Part shown: in pieces, positions 20,665 through 35,902 of the stretch
How positions within the stretch are numbered: the stretch's first letter is position 1
How the letters are laid out: each line of letters opens with the position of its first letter
From: Luteitalea pratensis
Lineage (GTDB): Bacteria > Acidobacteriota > Vicinamibacteria > Vicinamibacterales > Vicinamibacteraceae
DNA: 64,000 nt
Reading direction: 5' to 3'
Assembly: GCF_001618865.1 (NCBI RefSeq)
Contig: NZ_CP015136.1
Coordinates: 4,809,001-4,873,000 of the forward strand
Notes under the pieces: generated by a model
What the model was told of the DNA's origin: nothing
What the model saw: the letters and a program-made list of their open reading frames with translations, nothing else
Database searches by the model: none
Made by a program: the position numbers and the translations under genes

Positions 20665-21190
20665 TCAGTTCTCACAACGAATGGGGCTCTGCAGATTCTC
20701 TGGGATAAGCCGCTCGACGATGACGACATCGAGCCAGCGTCCGTCGAGCGGGGCGTGCTTCTCGTAGATGCCGACTTCGCGGAACCCGCAGGCCGCGCAG
20801 AGGGCACGACTGGCCGTGTTGAACGGGAAGATGCGCGACACGAGCTTCCAGAAACCTCGCTCACGAGCCGCGTCGATCAGTGCCATCAGTAGCACACGTC
20901 CCGTACCGCGGCCCCGCGCTGCTCTGTCCAGATAGATCGAGAACTCCGCGATGCCGGCGTAGCAGTCTCGTGGTCGGTAGCTGCTGAGGCTGGCGCACCC
21001 GAGCACGCGGCCATCCGACGCGGCCACCAGCATCGGATAGCGCTCGATCTCGCCGATCCTCATCTCGATGTCGGGCAGTCGTACGAGGCACGGTGTCGAA
21101 TGTCGCGGTCCGTTCGGCAATGCCCTGGTTGTAGATGTCCGTGATGGACGGAGCGTCATCGACGGTGGCAAGGCGGATGCTGCACGACAT
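20665..21190 (-). pseudogene. arsN1: ArsN1/PAT-like GNAT acetyltransferase with one frameshift
   Basis: ATG 21190 opens MSCSIRLATVDDAPSITDIY, NQGIAERTATFDTVPRT; after that the homology moves by one base into a second frame: PDIEMRIGEIERYPMLVAAS, ASLSSYRPRDCYAGIAEFSI, RAARGRGTGRVLLMALIDAA, LVSRIFPFNTASRALCAACG, ending at 20665. The joined product is a typical ~170-residue N-acetyltransferase of the phosphinothricin/ArsN1 group, which acetylates arsinothricin or phosphinothricin. The acetyl-CoA loop RGRGTG is intact. A single indel near 21085 breaks it; a sequencing error is possible because everything else is conserved. It is the last gene of the leftward arsenic block. Confidence 0.75.
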
Positions 21191-21199
21191 GGGCCGATC

Positions 21200-22375
21200 T
21201 CACAAAGGACGAATTGGGGACGCTGAAGCCGACCGCGACGGCGACGCCAATGCAAGGGCCGCGAAGGTCGCGCCGAGCACCACAAGCACGAAGCGATACC
21301 CGGCTAATGACGCGAAAGCTCCCGCGACAACCGGGCCAGCGGCTCGAGCCAGTTGCTGGGCGCGGGCAATCCGGCCATTCAACTGCCCGGCCTGTTCGGC
21401 GCCAAACTCGTTCTGCACCAGGTAAGGGCGGACGAGCGTGGACAGCCCGGCGCCCACGGCGAACACCGCCAGCCCGAGGACCACCGCGGTGTCGGACGGC
21501 ACCACCGCCCAGGCGAGCAGCCCGACGGCCTGCAGGCAGAGGCTCACGCCGAGCAGCACAGACGGTGACGTGTGGTCGTCCGCCTGCAGGAGCAGCACAC
21601 GCCCGGGCAATTGCATGACACCGAAGAGGCCGCCCAAGGTCGCCGCCGTTCCCGCCGTGAACCCTCGCTCGCTCAGCGCGGCAACGAGGTTGGACATCAC
21701 GGCGGTGCCGGCGAGGCTGACGAACGCGAAGGTGACCAGCATTGGCTGAAGGCCTACAGCGGGCTTGCGTGATGCGGCTCGCTGAACTGCTTGCGCCAGA
21801 GGTTCCGTGCGTGCTGCCGCATCCCGGCACGCCACGCACCATGTGATGAGCGTGGACGCGCCGATGCAGGCAGCGAGGGCCACCACAGCGCGCCGCCACC
21901 CGACCTCGCCAATCAGCCAGCCCGTGAGCGGCAGGAAGACCGTGCTCGCAAGCCCACCGAAGATCGTCACGAACGCCAGCGCGCGAAGGCGTCCGGCGGC
22001 ATTGCTGTGCCGCCGTCCGACGATCGCGAACGCCGGCTCGTACAGTGTGGCGGCCATGCAGAAGCCGAGCGCTGCCCAGATCACGTACAGGTGGAAGACG
22101 TGTGACGCGAAGGCCGAGGCGGCGAGCAACACGGTCGCCGCGACGCCGCCGATCTGCATGATGCGCGGCGCCTCGCCACGGTCACTCCACTGCCCCACCA
22201 CCGGCGCGGCCAGGGCCGCAACGAGCAAGGCCGATGAGAATGCGCCCGTGACCACCCAGGGAGTGGCTCGGAGGTCGGTCGCCATCGGCAGCAGCAGCCC
22301 GGCGAAGGCGTAGTACAGGACGCCCCAGTTGATGCACTGGCCCAGCCCCAAGCCGACGAGCGCACGGCGTGGCAT
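21200..22375 (-). CDS. MFS transporter, probable arsenical exporter (ArsK-like)
   Basis: A 391-residue major-facilitator protein with 12 predicted membrane segments. The ATG at 22375 is chosen because it gives the family start MPRRALVGLGLGQCINWGVL; longer forms only read into the arsO 3' end. Visible landmarks are the loop between helices 2 and 3 (VVGQWSDRGEAPRIMQIGG), AAPVVGQWSDR and the paired second half beginning VTFAFVSLAGTAVMSNLVAA. It lies 16 bases after arsO and 9 bases before arsN1. MFS carriers of arsenical type (ArsK, ArsJ) occur in this context; the assignment to arsenic rests on neighbours, not on residues I can point to. Confidence 0.75.
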   Translation of the reverse strand: MPRRALVGLGLGQCINWGVLYYAFAGLLLPMATDLRATPWVVTGAFSSALLVAALAAPVVGQWSDRGEAPRIMQIGGVAATVLLAASAFASHVFHLYVIWAALGFCMAATLYEPAFAIVGRRHSNAAGRLRALAFVTIFGGLASTVFLPLTGWLIGEVGWRRAVVALAACIGASTLITWCVACRDAAARTEPLAQAVQRAASRKPAVGLQPMLVTFAFVSLAGTAVMSNLVAALSERGFTAGTAATLGGLFGVMQLPGRVLLLQADDHTSPSVLLGVSLCLQAVGLLAWAVVPSDTAVVLGLAVFAVGAGLSTLVRPYLVQNEFGAEQAGQLNGRIARAQQLARAAGPVVAGAFASLAGYRFVLVVLGATFAALALASPSRSASASPIRPL

Positions 22376-22391
22376 CGTCGGCGCGACTTCT

Positions 22392-23738
22392 TCAGCCACA
22401 GCACCCGGCGCCCACGCGAACGGCCACAGGGGTTGCCGTGAGGACCTCGAGGGGCGCGGGCGCGCTACCGCAGCAGGCGACGGTCGGTGCTTCGTCGCGA
22501 TCGAGCGAGCACGCGCCAGTCTCCGGCAGGACGAGTTCCACCCGACGCGCCGCGTCCCAATCGCCTGCGATCGCACTCACGACCGACCTGGCCTGCTCGT
22601 ATCCCGTCAAGAGGAGGAACGTCGGGGCACGGCCGTAGCTCTTCATGCCAATCGCAAACAGGTTCGCATCCGGATGCTTGAGTTCCTCGGCGCCGTGCGG
22701 ACGCACGGTTCCACAACTGTGCACGTTCGGATCGATCAGGGGCGCGAGCGCACGCGGGCTCTCGACGGCAGGATCGAGATCGAGACGCACTTCACCAAGA
22801 ATCGACCAGTCGGGGCGGAAGCCCGTCGCGGCAATGATCTCGTCGACGGGAGGCAGATCCTGCGCACCGTCGCTCACCACGAGCCCCGCTACCGTGGACG
22901 TGATTCGCGCAATGCGAAAGGCCCTCACGAGTTGCAGACGATTCGTGTCCAGAAGCGTGCGTACTCGGGCGCCGAGGCGCCCACGCTCGGCGAGCTGATC
23001 GTTCCTGGCGCCGCCGAGGGTCTGCGCCAACGCCGGTCGCCTGATCGCCCAGATGATGTGCGTCCTGCCGTCCGTCTCGACGAGCTGCGCGAGATCGAGC
23101 AACGCATTGAGCGCCGAGTGTCCGCTGCCCACCACGAGTACGCGGCGGCCCTGGTAGCGCGAACGCTGCGAGCCGAGAACGTCGGGAATGCCGTAAGCGA
23201 TACGGCCTGCCGCGCTCCGCTCGCCGATGGCCGGCAGGCCCGACCCGCCGAGGACGCCTGGGCGTTCCGTGGTGCCCGAGGCATCAATCACGGCCTGGGC
23301 CAGCACGTCCTGCTCGCCGGCGGCGCCATCGACGCGGACGAGAAATGGCGCGGTCTCGCGCGTGGCGTCCTTCATCAGGTCGTGTTCGTGCCGCGCGACC
23401 GATGTCACTCGCGAGTCGTAGCGGATGTGCGGCGCCAGTTCCCGTGTGCTGGCCAGCGGCTCCAGGTACTGTTCCACGAGCTCACGGCCCGTCGGAAAGG
23501 TCTCGCCGTCCGGACGCACCCAGCCGTGGCGCTCCAGGATCGCCGCCCCCTCTGCGTCGACGTCGTACTTCCAGGGCGAGAACATGCGGACATGGCCCCA
23601 GCGTCGCATCGCGGCGCCAGCGGACGGGCCCGCTTCGAAGACGAGGGGCGTGAGGCCACGCGAGAGTACTTGCGCTGCGGCGGCAAGGCCCACCGGGCCT
23701 GCACCGATGATGGCAATTGGAAGAGAGGTGAGCTCCAT
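22392..23738 (-). CDS. arsO: ArsO-like flavin monooxygenase of arsenic clusters
   Basis: A 448-residue FAD/NADPH oxidoreductase. GGGAGA lies 7 bases before ATG 23738, ahead of MELTSLPIAIIGAGPVGLAA, the FAD-binding GxGxxG. A second dinucleotide motif follows at RRVLVVGSGHSALNALLDLA, and the late ATG-like motif is EIIAATGFRPDW. The C-terminal ~45 residues bear isolated cysteines (TGACSLD, ACCGSAP, GAGCCG), a tail common to ArsO proteins and suited to As(III). ArsO is thought to act on arsenic or organoarsenic species; the reaction is not well defined. A 15-base inverted repeat at 23760-23774 overlies its promoter zone, pointing to control by the adjacent MarR protein. Confidence 0.82.
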   Translation of the reverse strand: MELTSLPIAIIGAGPVGLAAAAQVLSRGLTPLVFEAGPSAGAAMRRWGHVRMFSPWKYDVDAEGAAILERHGWVRPDGETFPTGRELVEQYLEPLASTRELAPHIRYDSRVTSVARHEHDLMKDATRETAPFLVRVDGAAGEQDVLAQAVIDASGTTERPGVLGGSGLPAIGERSAAGRIAYGIPDVLGSQRSRYQGRRVLVVGSGHSALNALLDLAQLVETDGRTHIIWAIRRPALAQTLGGARNDQLAERGRLGARVRTLLDTNRLQLVRAFRIARITSTVAGLVVSDGAQDLPPVDEIIAATGFRPDWSILGEVRLDLDPAVESPRALAPLIDPNVHSCGTVRPHGAEELKHPDANLFAIGMKSYGRAPTFLLLTGYEQARSVVSAIAGDWDAARRVELVLPETGACSLDRDEAPTVACCGSAPAPLEVLTATPVAVRVGAGCCG

Positions 23739-23759: not shown

Positions 23760-23774
23760 GTTGTCACTGACAAC
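23760..23774. promoter_or_regulatory. Putative MarR operator upstream of arsO
   Basis: The bases GTTGTCACTGACAAC form a perfect inverted repeat (7 + 1 + 7), 21 bases before the arsO start and 19 bases past the marR stop. The same motif with two changes recurs at 24333-24347 just upstream of the MarR gene, which supports a shared regulator site. Confidence 0.65.
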
Positions 23775-23792
23775 CAAATGGCCAGGAACGGA

Positions 23793-24329
23793 CTAAGGAC
23801 AGGCCGACGAGGTCGCTCCAGGCGCGCAGCAACTCTCGGCCGGGACGGATTGGCCCGCACGAAATCGCGCATCCGCCGCACGGGCCAGCCGTCGAATCGT
23901 GTCGACCACCCCGGCTCGTACCGTAGGGTCGAGGTCTTCAATCAGCTCGCGCTGCTGGGCGACGAGACCGTCCTGGATCCGCTGGTACAACTGGCGTCCT
24001 CGCTTCGTCGCACTGAGCGCCGTCGCCCGAGCGTCCACCGGATCCGGATGCTGCTCGACATAGCCCTTCTTCACGAGCGCCGACACCACACGACTGCTGG
24101 TGCTCTTGTCGAGGTAGAGGCGCTCCGCGAGATTCATCAGCCGCATGGGACCAGCTGCGACAAGTGCCTCGAGGGCATGGCACTGCGTCACCGAAATGTC
24201 GTGGCAGCAGATGCGGTCGCGGTCGCGGAACTGATACACACGAACAAGTTCCGACACAGCGGCGTGCAGGGCGACGGCATCCCGATCGACGGCCGTGCGA
24301 GACGATTTGATGGACGCAGGTTGCGGCAT
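23793..24329 (-). CDS. MarR-family regulator with a Cys-rich C-terminus
   Basis: A 178-residue winged-helix regulator. The dimerisation helix precedes RICCHDISVTQCHALEALVA, with a Cys pair and a third Cys in the helix before the DNA-binding domain. Recognition helix and wing read RLYLDKSTSSRVVSALVKKG and VEQHPDPVDARATALSATKR. The tail SCCAPGATSSACP adds three more cysteines. The CC-C cluster makes a thiol- or As(III)-responsive repressor plausible. Its start is 4 bases from one copy of the GTTGTCAC repeat and its stop is near the other, so autoregulation plus control of arsO is the simplest model. Confidence 0.82.
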   Translation of the reverse strand: MPQPASIKSSRTAVDRDAVALHAAVSELVRVYQFRDRDRICCHDISVTQCHALEALVAAGPMRLMNLAERLYLDKSTSSRVVSALVKKGYVEQHPDPVDARATALSATKRGRQLYQRIQDGLVAQQRELIEDLDPTVRAGVVDTIRRLARAADARFRAGQSVPAESCCAPGATSSACP

Positions 24330-24332
24330 ATC

Positions 24333-24347
24333 GTTGTCACTAGCAAC
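24333..24347. promoter_or_regulatory. Putative MarR operator upstream of its own gene
   Basis: The bases GTTGTCACTAGCAAC match 13 of 15 positions of the palindrome at 23760-23774. The site abuts the MarR start codon at 24329, where a bound repressor would block ribosome or polymerase access. Confidence 0.6.
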
Positions 24348-24425
24348 TATAGGTACAGGTCAGACGGATAGCAACCGGCAATTGTTCCCGCCAACCTTGC
24401 TTGACGCAGGCCCGCACCCTTGAGT

Positions 24426-26108: not shown

Positions 26109-26126
26109 TATCGTCAATCGACGATA
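26109..26126. promoter_or_regulatory. Putative ArsR operator in the arsM-arsR divergent region
   Basis: TATCGTC (26109-26115) and GACGATA (26120-26126) form a 7-base inverted repeat with a 4-base spacer, 10 bases before the arsR start. Placement between divergent arsM and arsR suits repression of arsR-acr3-arsD-arsA and possibly arsM. Confidence 0.6.
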
Positions 26127-26136
26127 GACGATTGCC

Positions 26137-29786: not shown

Positions 29787-30263
29787 ATGGTGTCACTCAG
29801 AGTCGTCCGTCACGTTCCACCACCGCTCGTCGGTGTCATTGGCGCAGTGCCTGACCGCAGGTCAACGGCGTTCGAAGATGCGCTGGATTGGCTGGAAGCG
29901 GCCGGTGTCTTGGTAGAGCGCGTCGACACAGACGCCTACGCGCAATCGACGGTGGACATCGCCGTCCCCACGGCGATGGCGTTGCCGGCGGTGTTCATGA
30001 ACGGAGACGTCGTATCCGAAGGACGGTTTCTGACACGGCACGAGCTGGCGCACCTCGTCGCCGAAGCGACCGCGAAGCCACCAGCGGCACTCGTGCGCGC
30101 CGTGGCGGCAGTCGGTGCGGCGGCCGCCGTGGGCGCCGCCGACGCCATCGCGACGGCCGTGCGTGACGCGAAAGCAAACGGACTGGCCGAGGGGCTGATC
30201 GACATCGCCCTGCGAACCGGAACTGACGTACGCAGGGCTCACCGCTCAGCACCCGCTGCGTGA
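29787..30263 (+). CDS. ArsD-like thioredoxin-fold protein without cysteines
   Basis: A 158-residue protein behind a strong AGGAGG site. Its middle resembles ArsD in order: DALDWLEAAGVLVERVDTDA, then LPAVFMNGDVVSEGRFLTRH and ELAHLV, matching ArsD's helix, the VLVDGEV strand and the RYPxRxELAxW helix. No cysteine occurs anywhere in the chain, so it cannot bind As(III) as ArsD does. The C-terminal ~50 residues are Ala-rich and unlike ArsD. It follows arsA by 46 bases and precedes the phosphoesterase by 43. A structural partner of ArsA or of ArsD is one possibility; nothing proves it. Confidence 0.6.
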   Translation: MVSLRVVRHVPPPLVGVIGAVPDRRSTAFEDALDWLEAAGVLVERVDTDAYAQSTVDIAVPTAMALPAVFMNGDVVSEGRFLTRHELAHLVAEATAKPPAALVRAVAAVGAAAAVGAADAIATAVRDAKANGLAEGLIDIALRTGTDVRRAHRSAPAA

Positions 30264-35759: not shown

Positions 35760-35902
35760 GACGGAGATACTCGGCACGGAGACTGTCGCACGCCCTCGCG
35801 CGACCACGGAACACGCCATCCTAGCAAACGGCACTCGCAGGCGCCACCCATGCTTGCATCCTTGACATGGTTGACACTGCCACCGGGCCTCCGTAGGCTC
35901 TA

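What the first reader, a model, noticed from the sequence alone, without database searches (positions are those of the whole stretch)
23760..24347. Shared 15-base operator pair around a Cys-rich MarR regulator in the arsenic cluster
GTTGTCACTGACAAC upstream of arsO and GTTGTCACTAGCAAC upstream of marR differ at two bases. The MarR protein has a CC...C cluster before its DNA-binding domain and a CC...C tail. This suggests a second As or organoarsenic sensor besides ArsR, controlling arsO, the MFS pump and arsN1.
Basis: partly seen in the sequence, partly recalled or inferred. Interest (0 to 1): 0.6.

Follow-up and report, generated by a model that had tools for sequence, protein, structure and literature searches.

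The report
Cysteine-rich MarR switch for organoarsenic defence
A soil bacterium carries a gene switch, related to antibiotic-resistance repressors but armed with metal-grabbing cysteines, that very probably turns on defences against arsenic-based toxins; the same switch and its DNA landing sites recur in many bacteria, yet I found no paper describing it.

Summary
GTTGTCACTGACAAC (23760-23774) and GTTGTCACTAGCAAC (24333-24347) are the only two places in the 7.48 Mb genome that fit GTTGNNANTNNCAAC, and they flank marR. GTTG-N7-CAAC lies just upstream of marR in 84 of 93 loci and in the gap behind it in 61 of 93; 0.003 are expected per 225 bp. In 22 of 33 cluster representatives a sigma70-type promoter accompanies the upstream site (0.9% of control positions), in 19 with its -10 box starting exactly 4 bp before the operator. 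The MarR belongs to a subfamily with a vicinal Cys pair before the wHTH and usually a Cys tail. Its partners include arsN1 (arsinothricin acetyltransferase), a flavoprotein, an MFS pump, arsM, arsQ/arsL (arsinothricin biosynthesis) and, in distant members, ArsP_1 permeases and hgcA (mercury methylation). Best reading: an auto-repressor released when a thiophilic arsenical, most likely trivalent and organic, binds the cysteines. Control of the operon is strongly supported; ligand binding is inferred. Corrections: the 'arsO' gene fails the ArsO model (47 of 425 bits), and this genome's arsN1 frame is broken near 21077. Ten searches of an open-access library showed me no description of such a regulator.

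The parts
24346..24374 (-). sigma70-type promoter-like site of marR, TTGCTA-17-TATAGT; its -10 box overlaps the first two bases of operator 1
   Evidence: 1 found, 0.1 expected in shuffles; same geometry in relatives
24333..24347 (-). operator 1 (GTTGCTAGTGACAAC on the coding strand), over the predicted transcription start of marR
   Evidence: core upstream of marR in 84 of 93 loci
23793..24329 (-). marR: 178 aa MarR-family protein with C41-C42, C50 and tail C167-C168, C177
   Evidence: MarR_2, MarR above gathering; AlphaFold2 pLDDT 88.6
24204..24209 (-). codons of vicinal C41-C42 between helices 1 and 2
   Evidence: C41 invariant, C42 at least 90% in the 50 aligned proteins
24180..24182 (-). 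codon of C50 in helix 2; replaced in a few relatives that keep tail cysteines
23826..23831 (-). codons of tail C167-C168
   Evidence: the column of C168 is at least 90% Cys
23760..23774 (-). operator 2 (GTTGTCAGTGACAAC), a perfect 7-1-7 palindrome in the gap between marR and the flavoprotein gene
   Evidence: core in the gap behind marR in 61 of 93 loci
22392..23738 (-).
   Evidence: relatives L020, L032 likewise
21200..22399 (-). MFS transporter related to ArsK (143 bits, below the 400-bit cutoff); start codon chosen by eye
20695..21190 (-). arsN1 family A acetyltransferase, frame broken near 21077
   Evidence: N-terminal part, 40 bits of 170; two pieces in frames -1 and -2

Best explanation
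The MarR protein is a thiol-based arsenical sensor and repressor. As a dimer it binds the palindrome GTTG-N7-CAAC. At operator 1 it covers the -10 box and start site of its own promoter (autoregulation). At operator 2 it holds down the genes that follow: flavoprotein, MFS pump and arsN1. When a trivalent arsenical enters the cell, it is captured by the C41-C42 pair plus C50 and/or the tail cysteines; the wHTH domains move, the repressor lets go, and the operon is induced. The likeliest ligand is a trivalent organoarsenical (methylarsenite from ArsM, or reduced arsinothricin), which needs only two thiols. Shown here: the operator pair, its uniqueness in the genome, its conservation, its promoter geometry, the recurrent partners and the recurrent Cys set. 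Inferred: dimer binding to DNA, ligand capture, ligand identity and derepression.
For: GTTGNNANTNNCAAC occurs only at these two sites in 7.48 Mb. The core is upstream of marR in 84 of 93 loci and behind it in 61 of 93 (both in 57), against 17 hits in 1.23 Mb elsewhere in the same loci; with one vote per 70% identity cluster, 35 of 39 upstream and 18 of 39 downstream. An earlier score test on 78 of 92 loci (14 dropped, no anchor found) gave 64 with at least 10 of 14 matches upstream, about 6 in shuffles. In 22 of 33 cluster representatives a promoter matches at least 9 of 12 (0.9% of control positions); 19 of these 22 have the -10 at exactly -4 from the operator. In many Pseudomonas loci a further copy stands at about -117, before a divergent MFS gene. 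In L033 another gene lies between marR and arsN1, yet an operator starts 26 bp before the arsN1 match. Partners in 84 loci: flavoprotein of the window's type 57, arsN1 50, MFS 46, arsQ 4, arsL 3. Of 30 profile hits from 297 acidobacterial genomes, 22 have the vicinal CC; all 22 neighbour arsM (15), an ArsP_1 permease (3) or hgcA (4). Eleven of the 15 arsM were tested with the NCBIfam model, 11 of 11 above cutoff. At least 3 Cys lie in residues 26-70 plus the last 40 in 92 of 93 proteins; the exception, L103, keeps the operator and has no ars gene in the stretch held.
Against: No binding or induction data. No sigma70-type promoter with at least 9 of 12 matches at operator 2 (0 of 18 representatives), so how it acts is unclear. 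The downstream core is missing in 32 of 93 loci, the upstream core in 9. Besides L103, four proteins lack tail Cys and six lack the full CC...C motif; the three ArsP_1-linked distant proteins have neither C50 nor a tail Cys, but a second CC further on. L105 has partly kept cysteines and cores but no ars gene nearby. Eleven of 84 loci show no recognised ars gene. In three of the four arsQ loci the only core is the far one, without the central A/T. arsQML of Burkholderia gladioli is As(III)-inducible and was ascribed to an ArsR (PMC8552651, passages), so inorganic As(III) remains possible. hgcA neighbours cannot be explained by arsenic alone.
Confidence: 0.74

Rival explanations
1. Same repressor and operators, but the ligand is inorganic As(III), bound by three cysteines as in ArsR; it duplicates ArsR input for genes that handle the products of ArsM.
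For: At least three Cys in the two regions in 92 of 93; arsC in 44 and arsB or acr3 in 33 of 84 loci; ArsM itself uses As(III), so an As(III) sensor before arsM would make sense.
Against: An ArsR with its own genes lies next door, so a second As(III) sensor would be redundant; C50 or the tail is dispensable in several relatives; many partners act on organic arsenicals.
Confidence: 0.3
2. The MarR is a redox or electrophile sensor (OhrR/MexR-like disulfide switch); arsenic stress acts through oxidation of the vicinal cysteines.
For: Some solved MarR proteins found here, such as MexR in its oxidised state and E. coli MarR with its C80S mutant, are thiol-switch proteins in my recollection. An ArsR of Paracoccus denitrificans lets go of DNA with arsenite and with diamide alike (PMC9137774, passages), so both inputs may act together.
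Against: The vicinal cysteines go with arsM, ArsP_1 or hgcA neighbours: 22 of 22 with CC have one, and of 8 without CC only a MarR-ArsN2 fusion has an ars gene. Peroxide-defence neighbours were not sought systematically.
Confidence: 0.12
3. The 15-mers are chance or structural repeats without regulatory role.
For: The window gives 5 loose matches against 1 expected, a weak excess.
Against: Conservation in records from at least four phyla, unique placement in the genome and fixed spacing to the -10 box.
Confidence: 0.01

Closest known systems
MarR family repressors (E. coli MarR, MexR, PcaV, Rv0880)
   Same: Fold, wHTH and a palindromic operator over its own promoter
   Different: Vicinal Cys pair between helices 1 and 2, Cys tail, arsenic or mercury-methylation partners; no NCBIfam cutoff is reached (best 41 of 220 bits)
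ArsR/SmtB arsenic repressors, including CgArsR (Cys15-Cys16 plus Cys55) and the methylarsenite-selective SpArsR
   Same: Would work alike: neighbouring cysteines as the presumed arsenical site, repression of ars genes; site types seen in PMC11868830 (passages)
   Different: Not an ArsR by sequence: no HTH_5 or HTH_20 hit at E 0.001 in Pfam
NemR, a trivalent-organoarsenical-selective repressor
   Same: Proposed class of ligand (PMC10080717, passage)
   Different: NemR is a TetR-family protein (recalled), not MarR
Arsinothricin resistance and biosynthesis (arsN1; arsQML)
   Same: arsN1 and, in 4 of 84 loci, arsQ sit beside this MarR and its cores; arsN1 function from PMC6465285 and arsQML from PMC8552651 (passages)
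   Different: A find for MarR gave 0 in both papers; arsQML in B. gladioli was ascribed to an ArsR
MarR metal sensors AdcR and ZitR (structures among the fold hits)
   Same: Metal-responsive MarR repressors (zinc; recalled)
   Different: Different metal and metal sites (recalled)

Membership tests
MarR family | MarR winged-helix domain above curated cutoff | tested here: met
   MarR_2 50.1 bits (cutoff 27), MarR 44.5 (24.6)
MarR family | MarR fold | tested here: met
   pLDDT 88.6; the 50 PDB chains listed have probability 1.00 and are MarR-type by title or recollection; TM-scores are only 0.43-0.58 by query length, with large rmsd
MarR family | Palindromic operator at its own promoter | tested here: met
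   (sequence anatomy only, no binding data)
MarR family | Homodimer that releases DNA on ligand binding | not testable with these tools
   needs protein
ArsR family | ArsR-type HTH domain | tested here: not met
   no HTH_5 or HTH_20 hit at E 0.001 for this protein, while the neighbouring ArsR has both
ArsO flavin monooxygenase (for the target gene) | NF040505 above cutoff | tested here: not met
   47 bits of 425, partial; relatives in L020 and L032 50-52 bits; the separate ArsO-like proteins of L019 and L022 reach 301 and 274, also below cutoff
ArsK arsenite MFS pump (for the target gene) | NF033733 above cutoff | tested here: not met
   143 bits of 400; nearly full-length but distant
ArsN1 family A (for the target gene) | NF040503 above cutoff over one intact frame | tested here: not met
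   N-terminal piece 40 bits of 170, frame broken; the relative in L020 scores 234
Trivalent arsenical sensor | Recurrent cysteine ligands, at least two or three | tested here: met
   at least 3 Cys in the two regions in 92 of 93 proteins; presence only, not binding
Trivalent arsenical sensor | Binding and derepression by arsenicals | not testable with these tools
   needs protein and reporter assays

The most novel reading that the evidence does not exclude
Vicinal-cysteine MarR proteins are a widespread, so far unnamed class of sensors for thiophilic organometal(loid)s. One branch is the missing regulator of arsinothricin resistance and, in some Pseudomonas, of its biosynthesis (arsQ, arsL); other branches control arsenite methylation (arsM), ArsP-type efflux and mercury methylation (hgcA and hgcB).
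Probability: 0.35. Interest if true: 0.85.

Novelty: new variant of a known kind. Interest (0 to 1): 0.63.

Why it matters
In what I read, sensing of trivalent organoarsenicals rests on an ArsR-type repressor (SpArsR) and NemR (passages). A MarR sensor with a simple palindromic operator, present in Acidobacteriota, Pseudomonadota, Gemmatimonadota and beyond, would be a third route, would link resistance to, and in some loci production of, an arsenic antibiotic in one circuit, and gives a ready biosensor part. The hgcA neighbours make the regulation of mercury methylation testable as well.

Tried and rejected
Chance repeat: rejected. Wider regulon in this genome: rejected for the strict consensus (only two sites); the looser window matches at 35870 and 40509 lack the full GTTG/CAAC core and fit chance. 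'ArsO' and 'ArsK' names: below curated cutoffs. Operator 2 as a second sigma70 promoter-operator: not supported (0 of 18 with at least 9 of 12). Inner operator positions: no excess of complementary pairs over independence (31 of 104 against 37.7, 34 against 32.7, 62 against 63.9), so only the outer GTTG/CAAC (fixed by the search pattern) and the preferred A7 and T9 are informative. A first count with a narrow Cys pattern and 1.5 kb flanks was not significant (12/5/5/8, p = 0.14). After changing the Cys rule to vicinal CC and widening the flanks it was 18/4/1/7, p = 0.001; L148 and L153 count there only through an ArsR-like hit; the 4 proved to be hgcA loci. Rule and partner list were widened after looking, so the contrast is descriptive; the added partners were sought in the non-CC loci too and not found. 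Flanks were unequal: L138 was judged on 1.5 kb, and L103, L113, L114, L156 and L157 lie near contig ends. Tree labels for L115 and L160 are wrong (both have CC), so its label-change counts are not used. One reference protein in the scripts, the window's Acr3, was read in a wrong frame; it matched only the window itself and enters no count for other loci. Start codons in the scripts are guesses; in several relatives the chosen ATG lies inside the operator. The search that gathered the loci used a pattern that includes C50, so C50 conservation is biased; C41 and C42 are in neither pattern. Literature: 10 searches, including MarR with arsinothricin, arsN, arsM, ars operon, arsenite plus cysteine, and methylarsenite. 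Fifteen papers were opened, passages only; none of the passages shown describes a MarR regulator of ars genes, and the other listed papers were not opened. Subscription journals are mostly not held, and MarR with hgcA was not searched (cap reached).

Full report
What is there. The window is part of a 7.48 Mb single-contig genome. On the minus strand lie arsM (25989-25033), a SigZ-like sigma factor (25025-24426), marR (24329-23793), a flavoprotein (23738-22392), an MFS transporter (about 22399-21200) and arsN1 (21190-20695, frame broken). On the plus strand arsR, acr3, arsD and arsA follow. GTTGTCACTGACAAC is a perfect 7-1-7 palindrome in the marR-flavoprotein gap; GTTGTCACTAGCAAC ends 3 bp before the marR ATG.

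More than chance. The perfect palindrome is unique in the genome, and the looser GTTGNNANTNNCAAC fits only these two places. Operator 1 touches a TTGCTA-17-TATAGT promoter-like site; one was found in 761 bp against 0.1 expected.

Relatives. A profile of the MarR brought 80 loci from named genomes (145 stretches matched a pattern, 120 qualified, the best 80 were kept). With 4 plasmid loci, 8 loci of unnamed acidobacterial genomes and the window, 93 were analysed. GTTG-N7-CAAC lies within 200 bp upstream of marR in 84 of 93, behind marR in 61 and in both places in 57; elsewhere in the same loci there are 17 hits in 1.23 Mb (0.003 per 225 bp), one of them the arsN1 site of L033. With one vote per 70% identity cluster the figures are 35 and 18 of 39; inside the core A is preferred at position 7 and T at position 9 (77%). 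A promoter with at least 9 of 12 matches accompanies the near upstream site in 22 of 33 representatives, against 0.9% of control positions; in 19 of these 22 the -10 hexamer begins exactly 4 bp before the operator, so TATAGT runs into GTTG (offsets -7, -7 and -19 in the others). That geometry is what a repressor of transcription initiation needs.

The second site seems to belong to the genes behind it rather than to marR. It precedes the flavoprotein in the window and arsN1 or a flavoprotein in most loci that have it. In L033 another gene lies between marR and arsN1, and an operator still starts 26 bp before the arsN1 match, while a near-core stands right behind marR. In many Pseudomonas loci a copy at about -117 faces a divergent MFS gene; in the four loci with arsQ (L021, L060, L087, L097) a copy at -116 to -119 faces arsQ, but there it lacks the central A/T pair, and only L060 also has a good near copy. 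So control of the biosynthesis genes is the weakest part of the regulon claim. No sigma70-type promoter sits at the downstream site (0 of 18 with at least 9 of 12), so whether it blocks a different promoter, acts as a roadblock or loops to operator 1 is open.

Partners. Among 84 loci (80 named-genome and 4 plasmid), 73 hold a recognised ars gene. A flavoprotein of the window's type is found in 57, arsN1 in 50, MFS in 46, an ArsO-like flavoprotein in 23, arsM in 7, arsN2 in 6, arsQ in 4 and arsL in 3 (tblastn at E 1e-8, not model cutoffs). Of the 11 without an ars gene, L025, L048, L070 and L095 have flavoprotein and MFS, L047 and L058 the flavoprotein, L023, L065, L081 and L093 have at most 2 kb behind marR, and L089 shows none of the partners. 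ArsN1 acetylates arsinothricin and confers resistance (PMC6465285, passages); arsQML makes it (PMC8552651, passages).

Is the cysteine set linked to arsenic? I took the 30 hits of the family profile in 297 acidobacterial genomes for which the tool gave loci (the best by score, except second hits in two genomes; 82 genomes had a hit), without regard to neighbours. Twenty-two have a vicinal CC between helices 1 and 2. Their neighbours are arsM in 15 (11 of these tested by NCBIfam, the window's and ten, all 11 above cutoff), an ArsP_1 permease in 3 and hgcA in 4. Of the 8 without CC, only one has an ars gene, and that is a MarR and ArsN2 match in one open frame (L151). The partner list and Cys rule were widened after a first, non-significant count, so the contrast is descriptive. 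Across the 93, at least 3 cysteines lie in residues 26-70 plus the last 40 in 92. Relatives without the full CC...C motif keep tail cysteines, and the four without a tail Cys keep CC...C; the exception in both is L103. The three distant ArsP_1-linked proteins break this rule: they have the CC but neither C50 nor a tail Cys, and a second CC further on. L103 lacks the set, keeps a good operator, and shows no ars gene in the 12.5 kb held, its marR lying near the contig end; by eye a catalase and a hydrolase are close. This single case suggests that the cysteines serve sensing, not DNA binding.

Structure. The AlphaFold2 model (pLDDT 88.6, monomer) is a MarR-type fold. C41 and C42 lie before helix 2, C50 is in helix 2 and the tail is of low confidence. 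The PDB matches are MarR proteins, with modest TM-scores. A type-3 ArsR site (two neighbouring Cys from one subunit, one from the other; PMC11868830, passages) is the nearest mechanistic parallel; methylarsenite needs only two thiols (same passages).

Origin. In a tree of 59 representatives the window MarR and one other acidobacterial sequence (L023) group with eight proteobacterial sequences, five of them Lysobacteraceae, with support 100/99; the deepest fork of that group is unresolved and the root is arbitrary. This hints at horizontal transfer of the module.

What it is called. MarR family: met. No NCBIfam model reaches its cutoff (best 41 of 220 bits). The flavoprotein is not ArsO and the pump not ArsK by cutoff. 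ArsV and ArsW, a methylarsenite oxidase and an efflux pump (PMC10080717, passages), could be relatives of these two, but I had no sequence to test.

Verdict. That it is an autoregulated local repressor of the organoarsenic genes I hold about 95% likely; that arsenicals act through the cysteines about 80%; that the physiological ligand is organic about 60%. These are judgements, not computed values. I found no paper describing it in ten searches of an open-access library (listed under Tried and rejected).

Noticed in passing
window 21190-20695 (-): arsN1 family A is split over frames -1 and -2 near 21077; real pseudogene or assembly error. Intact copies exist in relatives.
   Followed up: partly
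L149, L150, L154, L114: In unnamed Acidobacteria, distant vicinal-Cys MarR genes sit directly before hgcA (404-447 bits, cutoff 275). The ferredoxin behind it was tested in two: HgcB model 120 bits in L154 and 96 in L149, cutoff 99.
   Followed up: partly
L151 (G051): MarR and the acetyltransferase ArsN2 match in one 333-codon open frame.
   Followed up: no
L108:6570-8069 (-): ArsN2 and ArsM models both pass their cutoffs in one 500-codon open frame behind a vicinal-Cys MarR.
   Followed up: no
window 25025-24426 (-): SigZ-like ECF sigma factor with a Cys-rich tail between arsM and marR; a SigZ match also accompanies the module in L064.
   Followed up: no
L029, L031, L032, L034-L036, L039, L041, L046: The core contains an ATG about where transcription should start, hinting at leaderless marR mRNA.
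   Followed up: no
gap behind marR in several relatives, e.g. L024, L044, L059, L089: A run of T stands before the downstream operator; meaning unknown.
   Followed up: no
L146, L148, L153: MarR proteins before an ArsP_1 permease carry a second CC about 60 residues after the first.
   Followed up: no
window 29787-30263 (+): Second ArsD-like protein, just under the Pfam cutoff (26.6 of 27 bits).
   Followed up: no
window 26110-26132: ATCGTC/GACGAT repeats between arsM and arsR, plausibly the ArsR operator (read by eye).
   Followed up: no
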